Assembly: GCF_007748175.1 (NCBI RefSeq)
Contig: NZ_CP037422.1
Coordinates: forward strand, 4,542,334 to 4,606,333
Reading direction: 5' to 3'
Source of the DNA: Gimesia aquarii
Lineage (GTDB): Bacteria; Planctomycetota; Planctomycetia; Planctomycetales; Planctomycetaceae
Length of the DNA: 64,000 nt
Notes under the pieces: generated by a model
What the model saw: only the letters and a program-made list of their open reading frames with translations
What the model was told of the DNA's origin: nothing
The model's database searches: none
Made by a program: the position numbers and the translations under genes
In this document: positions 2,963 through 20,729 of the stretch, in pieces
How positions within the stretch are numbered: position 1 is the first letter of the stretch
How the letters are laid out: each line of letters begins with the position of its first letter

Positions 2963-3739
2963 ATGATAATCGTAAAAGACCTTACGCGAGTATTCGAAGC
3001 GAGTAACCAGGATGTCCTGGCGGTCGACCAAATCTCGTTTCAAGTACAACAGGGTGAGGTTTATGGTTTATTGGGACCCAATGGAGCCGGTAAAACAACC
3101 ACGCTCAGAATGATTCTGGGATTATTGAAACCTACCAGCGGCGATGCAGAAGTGGAAGGGTTTCTGGTATCAAGCCATCCCGATGAAATCAAACGGAGGG
3201 TGGGCTTGGTATCGACCAGTGCGGGTTTGTATCAATGGTTGACCCCTCGTGAAATTCTATTTTTCTTTGCTGACGTTTATGGTGTTTCCAAGCAGCAAGC
3301 TACGGAACGCATTAGAGCACTCTCTCGTCTCTTTGATATTACCACGTTTCTGGATCGCCGATCTGCCACTTTGAGTACGGGGCAAAAGCAACGTGTGAAT
3401 CTGGCAAGATCGCTCATTCATAATCCTCCTGTCATGCTCATGGATGAACCGACCCGTGGCCTGGATGTGGTTGGCAGTAAAGTCATTTTTGATTACATTG
3501 ACCACCTGCGCGATGAAGGGAAAGCGGTCATAGTCTGTACGCATCGGCTGGACGAAGCAGAACAACTCTGTGATCGCTTCGGCTTGATGCATCAGGGGAA
3601 AAAACGATACGAAGGTACTCTGACAGAATTGCAAGAAGTGACATCGTGCCAGACATTGACGCAGATTTTCTTGCAGTTACTGGACACCCCTTTTGAACAG
3701 GATGAAACCATACCTGCTACTCAAGAGAAAGTGATTTAA
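2963..3739 (+). CDS. ABC transporter ATP-binding protein (NatA-like)
   Basis: This is the cytoplasmic ATPase of an ABC-2 exporter, 258 aa. All motifs are present: Walker [10 protein letters not shown] near residue 40, signature LSTGQKQRV, Walker [13 protein letters not shown] and the H-loop histidine in [10 protein letters not shown]. This places it with the NatA/CcmA-type ATPases for ABC-2 permeases. The ATG at 2963 follows a strong GGGGAGGG site. Its TAA stop shares a base with the ATG of the next gene (TAATG at 3737-3741), so the two are translationally coupled and form one exporter. NatA/NatB is a sodium exporter in Bacillus; the substrate here is unknown. Confidence 0.92.
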
Positions 3740-5958
3740 TGTCGTCGCCTTCTAGTTCAGATTCGCAGGATCACATGCCTGGCTCAACGATCACGTTTCG
3801 GTTTTCAGGTCTCTTAAAAAAAGAACTGCGCGAAATTCTGCGCGATCGTCGTACTATTATTACTTTGATTTTAATGCCGGTGCTGGTTTATCCCTTGTTG
3901 GGGTTAATGCTGCAAAAGTTCTTTATCAGCCAGATGACGAATCTGGGAAAAGTGGAATATCAGATTGTGCTGCCCAATGAACCTGAAGCGAAGCTATTCC
4001 GTGACGTGTTTGCTCATGGAGAACAACTCCTGACGTTAAAAGAATATCAAGAGTTTTCGGATTCAGAAAAGACAAAGTCAGGCGAAACACTCGAAAAATT
4101 CCAGCAGGAAGATCCAGAAATCAAGATATTGATGGCGGATCACGAAGAGCATGTCCAAAGCCTGGAAACTTTAGTGCGCGAAGGATCTGTTGATATTGGA
4201 GTTCGCTATATTCCCAGTGATGAGCTGGATCAAAATCCTGATATCAACAAGCTGAGAGGGCGATTTGAAATCATCTACGGAGCTCAATCGAGACACAGTC
4301 GTCGTGTTGCTGACTATGTGGAGCAACGCTTGCAGGCGGTCAGGTGGAATTACCGGAACCGGCTTCTGAGAGATTTTGGTGAAAGCGATGCCGTCCCTTT
4401 CGTGACATCGGTTTCTGCGGTCAACTCAGATTCGGCACAGGCATTCTCGCTGGTCACAATTGTGCCTCTGATTTTAATTCTGATGACGGTTACAGGTGCC
4501 GTTTATCCCGCCATTGACTTAACTGCAGGGGAACGTGAACGAGGCACGCTCGAAACCTTAATGGCAGCTCCCCTTCCACGGATGTGGATTTTAAGTGCTA
4601 AATTCATCGCGGTCTTATTTGTGGCGATCCTGACAGCGCTGGTCAATATGACGGCCATGCTGGCGACCGCTTATGCCAACGGATTGGAAACGGTCTTGTT
4701 TGGTGCAGGTATGACTCCTTTTGTTTTGCTTGAGATCTTGCTGTTGCTTGTGATTTTTGCAGCTTTCTTTTCTGCTGTATTATTGTGCCTGACCAGTTTT
4801 GCGCGCAGTTTTAAAGAAGCGCAGGCGTACTTGATTCCACTGATGCTGATTTCAATGGCACCCGGGATTTTGGGAATGGTACCCGATTTAAAGATGACTC
4901 CGATGTGGGCCGTCATTCCCTTAGCAAATATTGTGTTATTAAGCCGCGACTTTCTTCTCCAGGAAGCACAGCAGGGCTTAGTGTTTCTCTCCGTGATTTC
5001 AACTTTGTTTTATGGCGTCATTGCGCTCGGAATCGCGGCTCGTATTTTTGGAGCCGATACGATTTTGTACCAGAGTCATACTACCTGGACTGATTTACTG
5101 AAGCGATCACAAAAGAAGCACTTAGTCCCCGCTCTCAATAACGCCATGATTTGTCTGGCGGTCTTATTTCCCGTTTTTATTCTTTCTTCGTCACTTGTCG
5201 GGCGTCTGGGTGAGATTTCGATGTCCCAGCGTTTGTTAGTTTCAGGAACGTTGACCTTCAGCCTGTTTCTTTTGATTCCGTTGTTATTCGCACGCATGGG
5301 AGGTGTGAAATTAAAAACGGGATTCCGCTGGTTTCCCCCTAAAGTCCTGGCATGTCTGGGGGCAATCCTGCTGGGCTTCACCTTGTGGCCCTTCGCGTAT
5401 GAAATTGAGATTCTCTCACTCAACAATGACCGGATTGAATCACTTTCCAAGATGTTTGAATCATTAAAACTGGAGCTGGGAAGTGTACCTTTGTGGGTGA
5501 AATTGATCTCATTGGCAGTCTTACCTGCAGTGTGTGAAGAATTATTTTTTCGCGGATATTTGTTAAGTGCCTTATTAAATCGATTTTCAAGTACACCTGC
5601 GATTCTAATTTCTTCATTCCTGTTTGCTTTGTTTCATGTGATTGTCAGAGATTCCCTGTTCATTGAACGTTTTTTTCCCAGTTTTTTAATGGGACTCAGT
5701 CTGGGATACGTGAATGTTCTCGCCCGCAGTGTGATTCCGGGTATCATGTTGCATATGATACACAATGGGCTGTTGATAACGATTGCCAATTATCAGGATG
5801 CGTTTTCCGAATGGGAAGTCAATCTGGAGAATCAGAAACATTTACCGATGCTCTGGTTGGGAACTTCTCTGATTCTGGTGATTGTTGGATTCACACTGAT
5901 TTACCTTAGCAATCGTAATCAGCTGGCTGCTGCAAAGAGCCTGACTGAGAAAAACTAA
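3739..5958 (+). CDS. ABC-2 permease fused to CPBP intramembrane protease (NatB-like)
   Basis: A 739-aa two-part membrane protein. The first part (about residues 20-450) is an ABC-2 permease: one membrane segment after the KELREILRDRRT motif, a large extracytoplasmic loop, then several segments beginning near SLVTIVPLILILM. The second part (about 490-720) is a CPBP/ABI-type protease with its full active site: E600-E601 and R605 in EELFFR, H633 in FALFHV, and H672/N676 in the HxxxN helix. CPBP proteases include Rce1, the CAAX prenyl endopeptidase, and bacterial bacteriocin self-immunity proteins. The ABC-2/CPBP fusion is known from other bacteria. It overlaps the ATPase gene by one base. The protease may process the exported substrate; this is inference. 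Confidence 0.92.
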   Translation: MSSPSSSDSQDHMPGSTITFRFSGLLKKELREILRDRRTIITLILMPVLVYPLLGLMLQKFFISQMTNLGKVEYQIVLPNEPEAKLFRDVFAHGEQLLTLKEYQEFSDSEKTKSGETLEKFQQEDPEIKILMADHEEHVQSLETLVREGSVDIGVRYIPSDELDQNPDINKLRGRFEIIYGAQSRHSRRVADYVEQRLQAVRWNYRNRLLRDFGESDAVPFVTSVSAVNSDSAQAFSLVTIVPLILILMTVTGAVYPAIDLTAGERERGTLETLMAAPLPRMWILSAKFIAVLFVAILTALVNMTAMLATAYANGLETVLFGAGMTPFVLLEILLLLVIFAAFFSAVLLCLTSFARSFKEAQAYLIPLMLISMAPGILGMVPDLKMTPMWAVIPLANIVLLSRDFLLQEAQQGLVFLSVISTLFYGVIALGIAARIFGADTILYQSHTTWTDLLKRSQKKHLVPALNNAMICLAVLFPVFILSSSLVGRLGEISMSQRLLVSGTLTFSLFLLIPLLFARMGGVKLKTGFRWFPPKVLACLGAILLGFTLWPFAYEIEILSLNNDRIESLSKMFESLKLELGSVPLWVKLISLAVLPAVCEELFFRGYLLSALLNRFSSTPAILISSFLFALFHVIVRDSLFIERFFPSFLMGLSLGYVNVLARSVIPGIMLHMIHNGLLITIANYQDAFSEWEVNLENQKHLPMLWLGTSLILVIVGFTLIYLSNRNQLAAAKSLTEKN

Positions 5959-16208: not shown

Positions 16209-17135
16209 ATGGAAAACCTTTTGGTTTTTTCTGCTGAAAATGCTGACCTGACTGTGCAATGGTGGATCACCGGAGCAGGGGTATTGCTCTATTTCATGGT
16301 GTTATTTGGAGTGACGGCATATACCCAGGCAGGAGTCATTGCCAGAGCTACGACGAAAGAAGCGATTCGCCAGCCAGTGTTTTTGCTTTTGCTCTCCTTG
16401 GGGTTGGTTTTGCTTTTGTTGAATACGTTTCTGCCATTCTTTTCGATGGGTGATGATGTCAAAATGTTAATGGACTGCGGCCTGGCTACAATTTTGATTT
16501 GTAGTTTGCTACTTGCAATCTGGTCTGCCAGTACAAGTATTGCGGATGAGATTGAAGGTAAAACCGCAATGACGTTATTATCCAAGCCGATTAATCGTCG
16601 TCAATTTATCGTCGGGAAATATCTGGGAATTCTGAAAGCCGTTGTTTGGCTAATGCTTCCTTTAGTGATTACCTTTCTGTTACTTGTTTATTTTAAGGTT
16701 GGGTATGACGCGAGAGAAGCTTCCAAAGACGTTCCGACTCACGCAGAAAAAATGGCTGCTGTCTGGCTGATTCTGCCAGGGATTCTTTTGATTTATATGG
16801 AAGTTGCAATCTTGACCGCAATCAGTGTTGCGATTTCTACTCGATTACCGATGATGGTGAACATGATAGTTTGTTTTGGTGTCTACATCATTGGGCACCT
16901 GACACCAAACCTGGTCCAGGCCAAAGCAGAAGGACTGGAATTCGTAAAATTTACAGGTCAGTTGATCGCTACGATTCTGCCGAACCTGGATAACTTTAAT
17001 GTCTCACCAGCGGTAGCAACTGGGACAATCGTTCCGCCAGTCTATATTGGTCATTCCGCTTTAAGCTGTCTGCTTTATTCCGGAATTGCGATTTTGGTTG
17101 CATTTATCCTTTTTGAAGATCGTGACCTTGCCTGA
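16209..17135 (+). CDS. ABC-2 type transporter permease
   Basis: A 308-aa inner-membrane protein with about seven hydrophobic segments (near residues 18-40, 57-78, 88-108, 145-165, 190-210, 213-233 and 280-300). The cytoplasmic motif between segments three and four, EIEGKTAMTLLSKPINRRQFIVGKY, is typical of ABC-2 permeases (DExExGTLxxLLSxPxSRxxFxxGK). Such permeases need a separate ATPase, but neither neighbour encodes an intact one: the next gene is an ABC protein whose ATPase site has decayed. The partner must be elsewhere in the genome, or the complex is unusual. It begins 443 bases after the acylphosphatase gene and ends 46 bases before the next. Confidence 0.87.
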   Translation: MENLLVFSAENADLTVQWWITGAGVLLYFMVLFGVTAYTQAGVIARATTKEAIRQPVFLLLLSLGLVLLLLNTFLPFFSMGDDVKMLMDCGLATILICSLLLAIWSASTSIADEIEGKTAMTLLSKPINRRQFIVGKYLGILKAVVWLMLPLVITFLLLVYFKVGYDAREASKDVPTHAEKMAAVWLILPGILLIYMEVAILTAISVAISTRLPMMVNMIVCFGVYIIGHLTPNLVQAKAEGLEFVKFTGQLIATILPNLDNFNVSPAVATGTIVPPVYIGHSALSCLLYSGIAILVAFILFEDRDLA

Positions 17136-17181: not shown

Positions 17182-19290
17182 GTGGGTCCCGTGTCAAATC
17201 GTCAGCCCAACGCATTCCATCGTGCATTTCCTGCGCGGGAATTCTTTCGCGGGTCGGCTAGATCAGTATTGTTTTGGTCACTTTTTAACGGCTTGTTGCT
17301 AACTCTGATACTGGTCGATTTATTTCTCATTATCGACTTACTCAACCATCGAGGCAAAATTACGGTTCGTGGAGAACAAAATGTCCTGGCGCTTCAGGAT
17401 ATCAGATCCGTTGAAGCTCCTGTTATTGTTCCCGAGCAGGAAGCCAAACCAGAGAATGAGCTAGATGAAGCAGGACCAGATGAAGCCAAATCTGAAGAAG
17501 GGCCTGGAAAATCAGCAGAAATAGAAAAAGGCAATACAGAGACACCTGCTCCCGAAAATCCGAACTACCTTATTTTGACTGATACGGGGATTTTGCCATC
17601 GGTGTGGTGGGTCCAAGTCAAATATCAGAATGGAATACTGAAGCAACTCTACCAGCGTTTCCCTTTACTTCAGGAAAATCAGTCTGCCCTGTTTACCCTG
17701 ATCCTTGTGGCATTAGTTCTGGCAAGTTTACGAGTTTTAATTCGATGGAGATCCAGGCAGCTGAGCCTGAAAATTTCTCGTCATGTTTCAATGACGCTCC
17801 GAAGTATGATTCATCGACAAGCGCTTCGATTGGGACCGGGAGATTTATCAGGCAAAGAAACCGATCAGGCTTTCAATTTGTTTATTAAAGATGTCGAGGT
17901 TGTGGAGAATGGCGTTTTCCAATGGGTCTATCGCATGTCTCAACATCCCGTCACACTATTAATACTGTTTTTATTCGCGGTATCAATTGATTGGAGGCTG
18001 ACCTTTCAATGTGTCATACCATTAGCGGCCGCCTGGTACTTTTTACTGCAGTACCGCAAAAATTATGAACTTCAACATGCCAAAACACTCGTCTCAATTG
18101 AATCTGAATTGTCATTGTTAGCTGAAAACTTGCGAAGTACACGTTTGGTTCGTGGGTATGGAATGGAAATAGTAGAGCATGATCGTTTCCAGAAACATCT
18201 CGAAAAATATTCGGAGAATACAACCAATTTAAAACGAGTTGAAGGTTGGGTTCACCGCATTGCCCGCGGACTGGCGGTATTCTGCTCGTGTCTGGTGATA
18301 TTTTTGGTAGGCTATAAAGTGCTGCTGAATCCAGAGAGTTTGCCGTTCTCTGCGGCGATTTTAATTGTGGGCATCTTTTCCTTTTTCTATTTGCCAGTCA
18401 ACGGGCTCTACGAACTGATTGGAGTACGTTCTGGTGCTAATATCGCTGCAAGCTCTGTGTATCGATATCTCAACAAGATTCCCGAAGTGAGTCAGGCGGT
18501 AGGCGCCAAATTTCTGGAGCCGTTATCGCAGGCACTTCAATTTGAGAATGTGAGTTATCGTCTATCCTCACAAGAGCCTGAAATTCTCAGTGGCTTTGAT
18601 TTAAAAATTCCTGCGGGAACGAGTACCGCTTTTGTCTCTCTCGAAGCGCTTGCACCGCGTGCGGCGAGTTACCTGATTCCACGATTTATAGAACCGAAGT
18701 CAGGACGGGTACTAATGGATGGTGAAGACAGCGCCTGGGTGACTTTAGAATCTCTAAGAGCCGAAGCCATTTATGTTGGCGGAAATGACCTTTGTCTGAC
18801 AGGAACGGTAAAAGAAAATATTCGATGTGGTGATGAACGTTATTCATTACAGGAAGTAATTGCTGCTTCAAAAGAGGTACGCGCGCATCAATTTGTCCAA
18901 AACTTACCACAAGGGTATGAGACTGCTTTAGGGCAAAATGGCGAGGAATTAACGATCGGCGAGTGCTTCCGTTTGGGTTTAGCAAGGGCTTTGCTAAGAA
19001 AGCCCGCTTTATTAATTATCGAAGAACCAGAGGGACCACTCGACGAGGATACAAAAACACTCTTGGAAGATACGTACTCACGAATTTTTCAGAATCGTAC
19101 CATTTTTATCATTCCTTCTCGGATTACGACGCTCCGCAATGCAGATCAAGTGGTACTGATTCATGAAGGAAAAGTGGAAGCAGTGGATACTCAGGCAAAC
19201 TTATTAAAGAAATCAGCTTTGTATCGACATTGGGAATATACTCGATTTAATCAGTTCAGGCACCTGCAAGAACCTTCGAACGGACGTTGA
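17182..19290 (+). CDS. ABC exporter-like protein with degenerate nucleotide-binding domain
   Basis: About 700 aa, laid out like a half-size ABC exporter: membrane segments at about 30-52, then an acidic Glu/Pro/Lys-rich insert (about 85-125), an ABC transmembrane domain (about 160-430) and an ABC ATPase-like domain (about 450-690). The fold-defining parts of the ATPase domain remain (PRFIEPKSGRVLMDG, GLARALLRKPALLII, RNADQVVLIHEGKV), but every catalytic motif is changed. Walker A aligns to SLEALAPRAA (486-495), with Lys replaced by Pro492; the Q-loop Gln is lost; LSGGQ is LTIGE (590-594); Walker B Asp is Glu614; and the H-loop His is Ser646. It should not hydrolyse ATP. The start may be the GTG at 17182 or at 17191. 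It follows the permease by 46 bases and precedes the HD gene by 15. Confidence 0.85.
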   Translation: MGPVSNRQPNAFHRAFPAREFFRGSARSVLFWSLFNGLLLTLILVDLFLIIDLLNHRGKITVRGEQNVLALQDIRSVEAPVIVPEQEAKPENELDEAGPDEAKSEEGPGKSAEIEKGNTETPAPENPNYLILTDTGILPSVWWVQVKYQNGILKQLYQRFPLLQENQSALFTLILVALVLASLRVLIRWRSRQLSLKISRHVSMTLRSMIHRQALRLGPGDLSGKETDQAFNLFIKDVEVVENGVFQWVYRMSQHPVTLLILFLFAVSIDWRLTFQCVIPLAAAWYFLLQYRKNYELQHAKTLVSIESELSLLAENLRSTRLVRGYGMEIVEHDRFQKHLEKYSENTTNLKRVEGWVHRIARGLAVFCSCLVIFLVGYKVLLNPESLPFSAAILIVGIFSFFYLPVNGLYELIGVRSGANIAASSVYRYLNKIPEVSQAVGAKFLEPLSQALQFENVSYRLSSQEPEILSGFDLKIPAGTSTAFVSLEALAPRAASYLIPRFIEPKSGRVLMDGEDSAWVTLESLRAEAIYVGGNDLCLTGTVKENIRCGDERYSLQEVIAASKEVRAHQFVQNLPQGYETALGQNGEELTIGECFRLGLARALLRKPALLIIEEPEGPLDEDTKTLLEDTYSRIFQNRTIFIIPSRITTLRNADQVVLIHEGKVEAVDTQANLLKKSALYRHWEYTRFNQFRHLQEPSNGR

Positions 19291-19305: not shown

Positions 19306-19893
19306 ATGGACATTCTTCATTCTCCTGTGGTCGAACAGGCGATTCGATTGGCTGCGATGGCCCACAAATCTCAAAAGCGAAAAGCATCAGGAATTCCATA
19401 TATTTCGCATCCCATGAGTGTGTGCCTGATCTTAACAAAGGCTGGTTTTCACGATGAGGATATTCTTGCCGCCGCAGTCCTTCATGACGTTGTTGAAGAT
19501 ACAAACTTGACGATTGAGCAACTCACAGAGCATTTTTCTGAAGAAGTGATTCAGTATGTCAGTGAAATGACAGAGCAAAAAGAAACAACCGAGGGGGAAA
19601 AGCGGAATTGGCGTGAGCGTAAACAGGACCATATTGAAGTCATGCAACAGGCAACACTGGGAGCGCGCGCAATTGAATTAGCGGATAAGCTTCATAATCT
19701 GGAAGCGATGCTGTTCGATTTACGATCAGAAGATATTAATGAATTTTGGAAACACTTTGGTGCCAGTCCGACTGAAATTTTTCAATATTATCGTTCTATG
19801 ATTGATGCGGCTGGGCAGTCGGACCAACAATTAGAGACCCTGGTACACAACTGTAATGCACGACTCGACGAATTGAAAAAATATCTTCCGTGA
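19306..19893 (+). CDS. HD-domain (p)ppGpp hydrolase-like protein
   Basis: A 195-aa HD-superfamily metal-dependent phosphohydrolase. The order of motifs matches the hydrolase half of RelA/SpoT and the stand-alone MESH1/SAH enzymes: H20 in AAMAHKSQ, KRKASGIPYISHP for substrate binding, the H60-D61 pair in AAVLHDVVEDT with E64-D65, and the later Asp in IELADKLHNL. The synthetase and TGS/ACT domains of full-length RelA/SpoT are absent. It probably removes the 3' pyrophosphate from (p)ppGpp or a similar nucleotide. It lies 15 bases after the degenerate ABC gene, so the two are likely one transcript. Confidence 0.85.
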   Translation: MDILHSPVVEQAIRLAAMAHKSQKRKASGIPYISHPMSVCLILTKAGFHDEDILAAAVLHDVVEDTNLTIEQLTEHFSEEVIQYVSEMTEQKETTEGEKRNWRERKQDHIEVMQQATLGARAIELADKLHNLEAMLFDLRSEDINEFWKHFGASPTEIFQYYRSMIDAAGQSDQQLETLVHNCNARLDELKKYLP

Positions 19894-20090: not shown

Positions 20091-20729
20091 ATGAGGCAGC
20101 AGAAAAGAGAATATTCAAACAGTTTTCTCTGGTTTTGGAATAATTGGATTGGTCTGTTTTTTTTCGTCTTCTTCGCATTTGGTGTTATTGTCGGAGGCGC
20201 TCTTTATCTTGATTCTCGACTTGCAGAAATTGAAGATCATCTTCAATATGTTCCACCACGGAGCTATGAGCCACCCAATCTGGATGACTATCAAGCAGGA
20301 AATATCTCATTAGAGAAATTACCAATACGGCAATTGGTTTATGTCCCCTCTTATTCGCACATTTACTATCACGGTGGATCACCGTTGCTGCTTGAAACAA
20401 CACTCAGTATTCGTAATATCGATCTTGAGCAGCCGATTTATCTGAACTCGATTGAGTATTTCAATACTCAAGGCAAACTGGTTAAGAAGTATCTTGAGCA
20501 AAAGATAAAATTAGCTCCTCTGCAAACGATTGAGTTCTTAGTCGAGGATCGCGATAGTTCTGGTGGATCTGGAGCCAATTTCCTTGTCGAATGGTTTTCG
20601 GAGAGCGAAGTTAACAAACCAATGATAGAAACGGTAATGATTGGGACATCTGGATCGCAGGCGATCAGTTTTACAAGAACGGGAGCCGATATTTCATCCT
20701 CAAATGGTGGAAGCACCCGGTCAAAATAG
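20091..20729 (+). CDS. DUF3124 family membrane-anchored protein
   Basis: A 212-aa protein with one N-terminal membrane segment (about residues 15-38, WIGLFFFVFFAFGVIVGGAL) followed by a periplasmic domain. The domain matches DUF3124: QLVYVPSYSHIYYHGGS, LLLETTLSIRNID and the VEWFSESEVNKPMIETVMIG stretch, typical of this family's single beta-rich domain. Function unknown. It sits 198 bases after the HD gene on the same strand and converges with the glycosyltransferase gene. A GGAAGG sequence lies about 12 bases before the ATG, a little distant. Confidence 0.85.
   Translation: MRQQKREYSNSFLWFWNNWIGLFFFVFFAFGVIVGGALYLDSRLAEIEDHLQYVPPRSYEPPNLDDYQAGNISLEKLPIRQLVYVPSYSHIYYHGGSPLLLETTLSIRNIDLEQPIYLNSIEYFNTQGKLVKKYLEQKIKLAPLQTIEFLVEDRDSSGGSGANFLVEWFSESEVNKPMIETVMIGTSGSQAISFTRTGADISSSNGGSTRSK

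What the first reader, a model, noticed from the sequence alone, without database searches (positions are those of the whole stretch)
17182..19290. ABC exporter whose ATPase site has been erased while its fold is kept
Seen in sequence: Walker A Gly/Lys/Ser replaced (aligned Lys is Pro492, Ser is Arg493), Q-loop Gln lost, LSGGQ changed to LTIGE, Walker B Asp to Glu, and H-loop His to Ser646. The structural flanks (RFIEPKSGRVLMDG, ARALLRKPALLII, RNADQVVLIHEGKV) and an open frame of 700 codons remain, so it is not simply a pseudogene. It also has a Glu/Pro/Lys-rich insert between its first membrane helix and the ABC core. Inference: a non-hydrolysing scaffold, sensor or channel in an ABC complex.
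Basis: partly seen in the sequence, partly recalled or inferred. Interest (0 to 1): 0.72.

Follow-up and report, generated by a model that had tools for sequence, protein, structure and literature searches.

The report
Conserved dead ABC exporter beside ABC-2
A membrane pump protein in planctomycete bacteria has lost every part needed to use ATP, yet the same disabled version has been kept intact in dozens of genera, almost always next to one particular partner membrane gene, so it probably does another job such as controlling or supporting that partner.

Summary
Window 17182-19290 encodes a full-length MsbA-like ABC exporter (AF2 pLDDT 89) whose Walker A, A-loop, Q-loop, signature, Walker B Asp and H-loop are all replaced. 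It is neither decay nor a quirk of one strain. Orthologues occur in 112 of 120 genomes of the family and in parts of four more families of the class. None of 95 aligned members has an intact Walker A. All sequenced full-length members keep an open frame; within the genus dN/dS is 0.05-0.08. They form one clade, sister to an intact exporter paralogue that the same genomes also keep. The 30 best exporters of 26 genomes without the clade all have intact motifs. It precedes the dead exporter, on the same strand, in 88 of 94 loci, and never precedes the intact paralogues. Best reading: a non-hydrolysing pseudo-exporter that partners or regulates this ABC-2 permease, which takes ATP power from an ATPase encoded elsewhere. 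Non-catalysis and conservation are well supported by sequence; the partnership is inferred from gene linkage. It is a new variant of a known kind.

The parts
17182..19290 (+). Pseudo-ABC exporter gene (TMD + degenerate NBD), 702 aa; the GTG start is not verified
16209..17135 (+). ABC-2 permease (PF12679), 308 aa, no ATPase gene beside it; directly upstream, gap about 50 nt; conserved partner gene
17254..17349 (+). TM1 (residues 25-56)
   Evidence: AF2 model
17350..17574 (+). extracytoplasmic loop 1 insert (57-131); 83-123 disordered, insert fast-evolving
17677..18471 (+). remaining transmembrane helices (166-430)
18472..18531 (+). TMD-NBD linker (PEVSQAVGAKFLEPL) with clade-specific Q438, F444, P447
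18637..18660 (+). former Walker A (SLEALAPR, 486-493)
18769..18789 (+). former Q-loop (530-536; Gln is G534)
18949..18963 (+). former signature LSGGQ, now LTIGE (590-594)
19009..19029 (+). Walker B region, LIIEEP; Asp is E614, Glu E615 kept, P616 clade-specific
19099..19131 (+). former H-loop, IIPSR; His is S646, R647 invariant
19219..19260 (+). clade-specific C-terminal motif LYRHWEYxRFNxFR

Best explanation
A vertically inherited pseudo-ABC exporter. A duplicate of an MsbA-like exporter lost ATP use in an ancestor within the class Planctomycetia and was kept for another role. It most likely forms an exporter-shaped dimer that does not hydrolyse ATP and acts as a partner, regulator or scaffold of the ABC-2 permease encoded just upstream, with power for the permease coming from an ATPase encoded elsewhere. 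SHOWN: motif loss, one clade, purifying selection, intact predicted fold, conserved two-gene arrangement without a neighbouring ATPase. INFERRED: dimer, physical contact with the permease, ATPase supplied in trans (one candidate is the NosF/GldA-type ATPase at genome 1400550-1401410), regulatory rather than transport role.
For: Orthologue at E <= 9e-82 in 112/120 family genomes (paralogues score 2e-51 or worse). GK[ST] in 0/95; Q-loop Gln 0/80, signature Ser 3/80 in the home family. Pseudo clade SH-aLRT 99-100, sister to an intact paralogue clade. dN/dS 0.052-0.084 within the genus; for window-L044 NBD 0.063, TMD 0.046. AF2 pLDDT 89.2, MsbA/TmrAB-like fold. ABC-2 permease upstream, same strand, in 88/94 loci (86 within 400 nt) and in 0/7 intact exporters. 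Clade-specific conserved positions in linker, NBD and C-terminus. Permease keeps its EIEGKTAxTLLSKPxxRRQF coupling segment. In genomes of other classes permease relatives lie about 7-10 kb from an ABC-2 permease of an ATPase operon (operon seen).
Against: Gene linkage is not proof of contact. The ABC-2 permease occurs without the pseudo-exporter in other families, so it does not need it. In five loci the permease is not adjacent; in G033, G074, G023, G350 and G459 it was found elsewhere in the genome. Retention of E615 in 95/95 and D621 in most members leaves residual or unusual nucleotide contact possible. The candidate trans ATPase has its own permease beside it.
Confidence: 0.5

Rival explanations
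1. It is the degenerate half of a heterodimeric exporter, paired with the intact paralogue encoded at genome 1515118-1517193 (L218).
For: The intact paralogue is in 60/61 family genomes, as universal as the pseudo-exporter, and belongs to its sister group. Heterodimers with one degenerate site are common (PMC7756269).
Against: Not adjacent. The pseudo-exporter lost its signature as well as Walker A, so both composite sites would be crippled; known heterodimers keep one working site. The paralogue has all motifs for a homodimer and its family exists class-wide without the pseudo-exporter. The other paralogue, L219, is missing from 13/61 genomes.
Confidence: 0.2
2. A stand-alone homodimeric channel, lipid scramblase or passive flippase; the ABC-2 gene is merely co-transcribed.
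For: Full transmembrane domain kept under strong constraint; CFTR shows an ABC exporter fold can be a channel (general knowledge).
Against: The linkage with one specific permease persists across families while other neighbours change. Does not explain why the dead NBD changes less in protein sequence than the TMD (dN 0.089 against 0.131, window-L073).
Confidence: 0.18
3. It still binds nucleotide or another ligand in an altered pocket and senses it.
For: E615 95/95, D-loop Asp and helical subdomain retained; relatives in other families keep Walker A Lys (9/15), Q (7/15) or His (5/15).
Against: Glycine-rich loop, Lys, Ser/Thr, A-loop aromatic, Q and H all gone in the home family; AF2 places a helix from residue 490, inside the former P-loop.
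Confidence: 0.1
4. A decaying pseudogene or assembly error.
For: Motif loss alone would fit decay.
Against: Open frames in all full-length orthologues, 58 genera sampled, dN/dS about 0.06.
Confidence: 0.01

Closest known systems
MsbA / Sav1866-type homodimeric ABC exporters (type IV fold)
   Same: Domain order, fold (best superposition MsbA 9fur, 3.2 A rmsd over 515 columns), about 20-24% identity; nearest NCBIfam MsbA_lipidA at 206 bits against a cut-off of 602
   Different: No Walker A, signature, Q-loop or H-loop; extended loop 1; linked to an ABC-2 permease
Heterodimeric exporters with one degenerate site (TM287/288, TmrAB, TAP; reviewed in PMC7756269)
   Same: Replacement of catalytic residues in an exporter NBD; good fold matches
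   Different: Those keep one working composite site and P-loops; here the subunit lost both its Walker motifs and its signature, and no intact partner is adjacent
Intact paralogue L218/L103-type of Planctomycetia
   Same: Sister clade, same genomes
   Different: All ATPase motifs intact; no ABC-2 neighbour
ABC-2 (type V) transporters such as NosFY or GldAF
   Same: Upstream permease belongs to PF12679 and keeps a coupling segment
   Different: No ATPase gene beside it; the next gene is a dead exporter instead

Membership tests
Active type IV ABC exporter (MsbA/ABCB-like) | ABC_membrane TMD followed by ABC_tran NBD in one chain | tested here: met
Active type IV ABC exporter (MsbA/ABCB-like) | Walker A GxxGxGK[ST] | tested here: not met
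   0/95 aligned members
Active type IV ABC exporter (MsbA/ABCB-like) | LSGGQ signature | tested here: not met
   LTIGE in the window; signature Ser in 3/80 of the home family
Active type IV ABC exporter (MsbA/ABCB-like) | Q-loop Gln and H-loop His | tested here: not met
   G534 and S646
Active type IV ABC exporter (MsbA/ABCB-like) | Walker B Asp plus catalytic Glu | tested here: inconclusive
   Asp replaced by Glu in most members, Glu kept in 95/95
Active type IV ABC exporter (MsbA/ABCB-like) | ATP hydrolysis | not testable with these tools
   needs protein
Degenerate-site heterodimeric exporter (TM287/288, TAP) | Intact half-exporter encoded next to it | tested here: not met
   no intact exporter adjacent; the upstream gene is an ABC-2 permease
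Degenerate-site heterodimeric exporter (TM287/288, TAP) | Degenerate subunit supplies a usable signature to the partner's active site | tested here: not met
Degenerate-site heterodimeric exporter (TM287/288, TAP) | Physical heterodimer | not testable with these tools
   needs pull-down or complex prediction
Complete ABC-2 transporter operon | ATPase gene adjacent to the permease | tested here: not met
   none adjacent in the window or in class relatives examined
Pseudogene | Broken frame or relaxed selection | tested here: not met

The most novel reading that the evidence does not exclude
A two-gene membrane system of Planctomycetia in which a whole exporter fold, dead at both nucleotide sites, has become a permanent non-catalytic subunit of an ABC-2 permease, i.e. 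a complex joining type IV and type V ABC folds and powered by an ATPase in trans.
Probability: 0.3. Interest if true: 0.85.

Novelty: new variant of a known kind. Interest (0 to 1): 0.62.

Why it matters
ABC exporters are defined by ATP-driven NBD closure; known degenerate cases keep at least one working site per complex. A family that erased all nucleotide contacts yet kept the whole transporter under purifying selection across about 58 genera would be a natural test of what the exporter fold does without ATP. Relatives that lost motifs to different degrees (some keep Lys, Gln or His) allow the loss to be traced. The stable pairing with an ABC-2 permease gives a direct, testable hypothesis. 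It also warns that annotation pipelines may call these genes 'ABC transporter ATP-binding protein'.

Tried and rejected
Homology between the N-terminal extension of ABC-2 permeases in families lacking the pseudo-exporter and loop 1 of the pseudo-exporter: none. Presence of the Phycisphaerae-type membrane protein of the HflKC cluster in the home genome: none. AF2 control on the intact paralogue: alignment too shallow, pLDDT 65, not used. Paper searches for pseudo-ATPase ABC transporters or a planctomycete case: nothing relevant; subscription papers and preprints are not held. An early neighbour count used two wrong query genes (an NAD kinase among them); it was redone. One neighbouring MacB-type ATPase (L135) belongs to a separate tripartite cluster. 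Co-loss of permease and pseudo-exporter in G043 was considered but could be a single assembly gap, and its congener G078 has the permease at a contig edge.

Full report
CHECK. The frame 17182-19290 is open, 702 aa. Pfam still recognises both domains but skips the Walker A part of ABC_tran.

NOT A LOCAL ACCIDENT. The home genome is 7.2 Mb in one contig; named relatives at 74-79% identity include Gimesia and otherwise unnamed planctomycete MAGs, so the window is from Gimesia or close to it (inference). A search of 120 family genomes found an orthologue at E <= 9e-82 in 112; the next-best hits, ordinary exporters, start at 2e-51. The eight exceptions are mostly incomplete genomes; G043 (99% complete) seems a real absence. 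A phylum search added relatives in other families of the class. Of 95 aligned members, none has GK[ST]. In the home family Q-loop Gln is 0/80, signature Ser 3/80, Walker B Asp 1/80; Glu615 is 95/95, R647 95/95, the following P616 93/95. Members outside the home family keep some pieces (Lys 9/15, Gln 7/15, His 5/15), which reads as stepwise loss.

SHARP BOUNDARY AND ORIGIN. A profile of the clade was run on 26 genomes without it; the 30 best exporters all have intact Walker A, signature and Walker B. Trees put all pseudo-exporters in one clade (SH-aLRT 99-100), sister to an intact class-wide paralogue clade that includes L218 of the same genome. So the family most simply arose once, by duplication and loss of ATP use, and the intact copy was kept (60/61 family genomes). 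These are quick trees with SH-aLRT support only, and L102 and L109 are long branches.

SELECTION. Nei-Gojobori dN/dS for window against L044 is 0.056 (NBD 0.063, TMD 0.046, loop-1 insert 0.10); other pairs within the genus 0.05-0.08; the upstream permease is lower still, 0-0.04. Clade-specific conserved positions absent from intact exporters lie in the TMD-NBD linker (Q438, F444, P447), around T521/E523, F596, P616, D630/R634, P645 and the C-terminal YRHWEY..FN.FR, as expected for a repurposed surface.

STRUCTURE. AF2 with 91 sequences gives pLDDT 89.2, pTM 0.82; only 83-123 and the termini are poorly ordered. Foldseek's top 50 PDB matches are all type IV ABC exporters: TM287/288, MsbA, TmrAB and others. 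In the model the strand ends at 486 and a helix starts at 490, inside the former P-loop. A control model of the intact paralogue was too poor to compare.

SURROUNDINGS. The gene directly upstream (16209-17135) is a 308-aa ABC-2 permease. tblastn found it upstream on the same strand in 88 of 94 pseudo-exporter loci with upstream sequence (86 within 400 nt), including loci of f5, f6, f9 and f12, and beside none of the 7 intact exporters. Other neighbours change. No ATPase gene adjoins it. The permease is class-wide even where the pseudo-exporter is absent, again without an adjacent ATPase. In genomes of other classes more distant relatives lie about 7-10 kb from an ABC-2 permease of an ATPase operon, in a region with HflK/HflC-like genes; the home genome's closest match to that ATPase is at 1400550-1401410 with its own permease. 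Power in trans is therefore plausible but unproven.

MECHANISM. Shown: conserved, non-canonical, expected not to hydrolyse ATP. Inferred: a non-hydrolysing partner of the ABC-2 permease. A heterodimer with L218 is the main rival; it is weakened because the pseudo-exporter also lost its signature, so neither composite site would be complete, unlike the degenerate-site exporters reviewed in PMC7756269. L219 as obligatory partner is unlikely, being absent from 13/61 family genomes, among them the complete genomes G004, G018 and G033 that have the pseudo-exporter.

NOVELTY. Nearest curated families are far below cut-off (MsbA_lipidA 206 of 602 bits) and the library searched gave no paper on such a family. 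I rate it a new variant of a known kind: a pseudoenzyme version of the exporter fold with a fixed genomic partner.

Noticed in passing
home genome 994000-1000000 (L220:1824-4022, -): A second, unrelated degenerate exporter (733 aa): Walker A intact but signature LTTNQ, Walker B LLIDG, H-loop position TGRQ; next to a probable HlyD-like gene (by eye), like a type I secretion pair.
   Followed up: partly
window 19306-19893 (+): Small RelA/SpoT-like HD_4 protein (possible stand-alone (p)ppGpp hydrolase) 15 nt after the pseudo-exporter; same neighbour in about 10 of 70 loci compared.
   Followed up: partly
window 2963-5958 (+): An intact ABC ATPase followed by a 739-aa ABC permease that looks fused to a CPBP-type protease (by eye), a complete ABC-2 system separate from the finding.
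   Followed up: no
L184-L187, L190, L191, L193, L195, L198-L202: In several class families without the pseudo-exporter (f2, f7, f8, f10, f13) the ABC-2 permease carries an N-terminal extension of about 200-300 aa with transmembrane and probable periplasmic parts; not homologous to loop 1 of the pseudo-exporter.
   Followed up: partly
L203, L213, L214: In other Planctomycetota classes relatives of the permease sit divergently beside a conserved cluster of a large membrane protein, HflC/HflK-like proteins and a metal-ATPase-like protein, with an ABC-2 ATPase operon nearby in L214.
   Followed up: partly
window 20091-20729 (+): DUF3124 protein with an N-terminal transmembrane stretch, second gene downstream, seen in 5 of 70 loci compared.
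   Followed up: no
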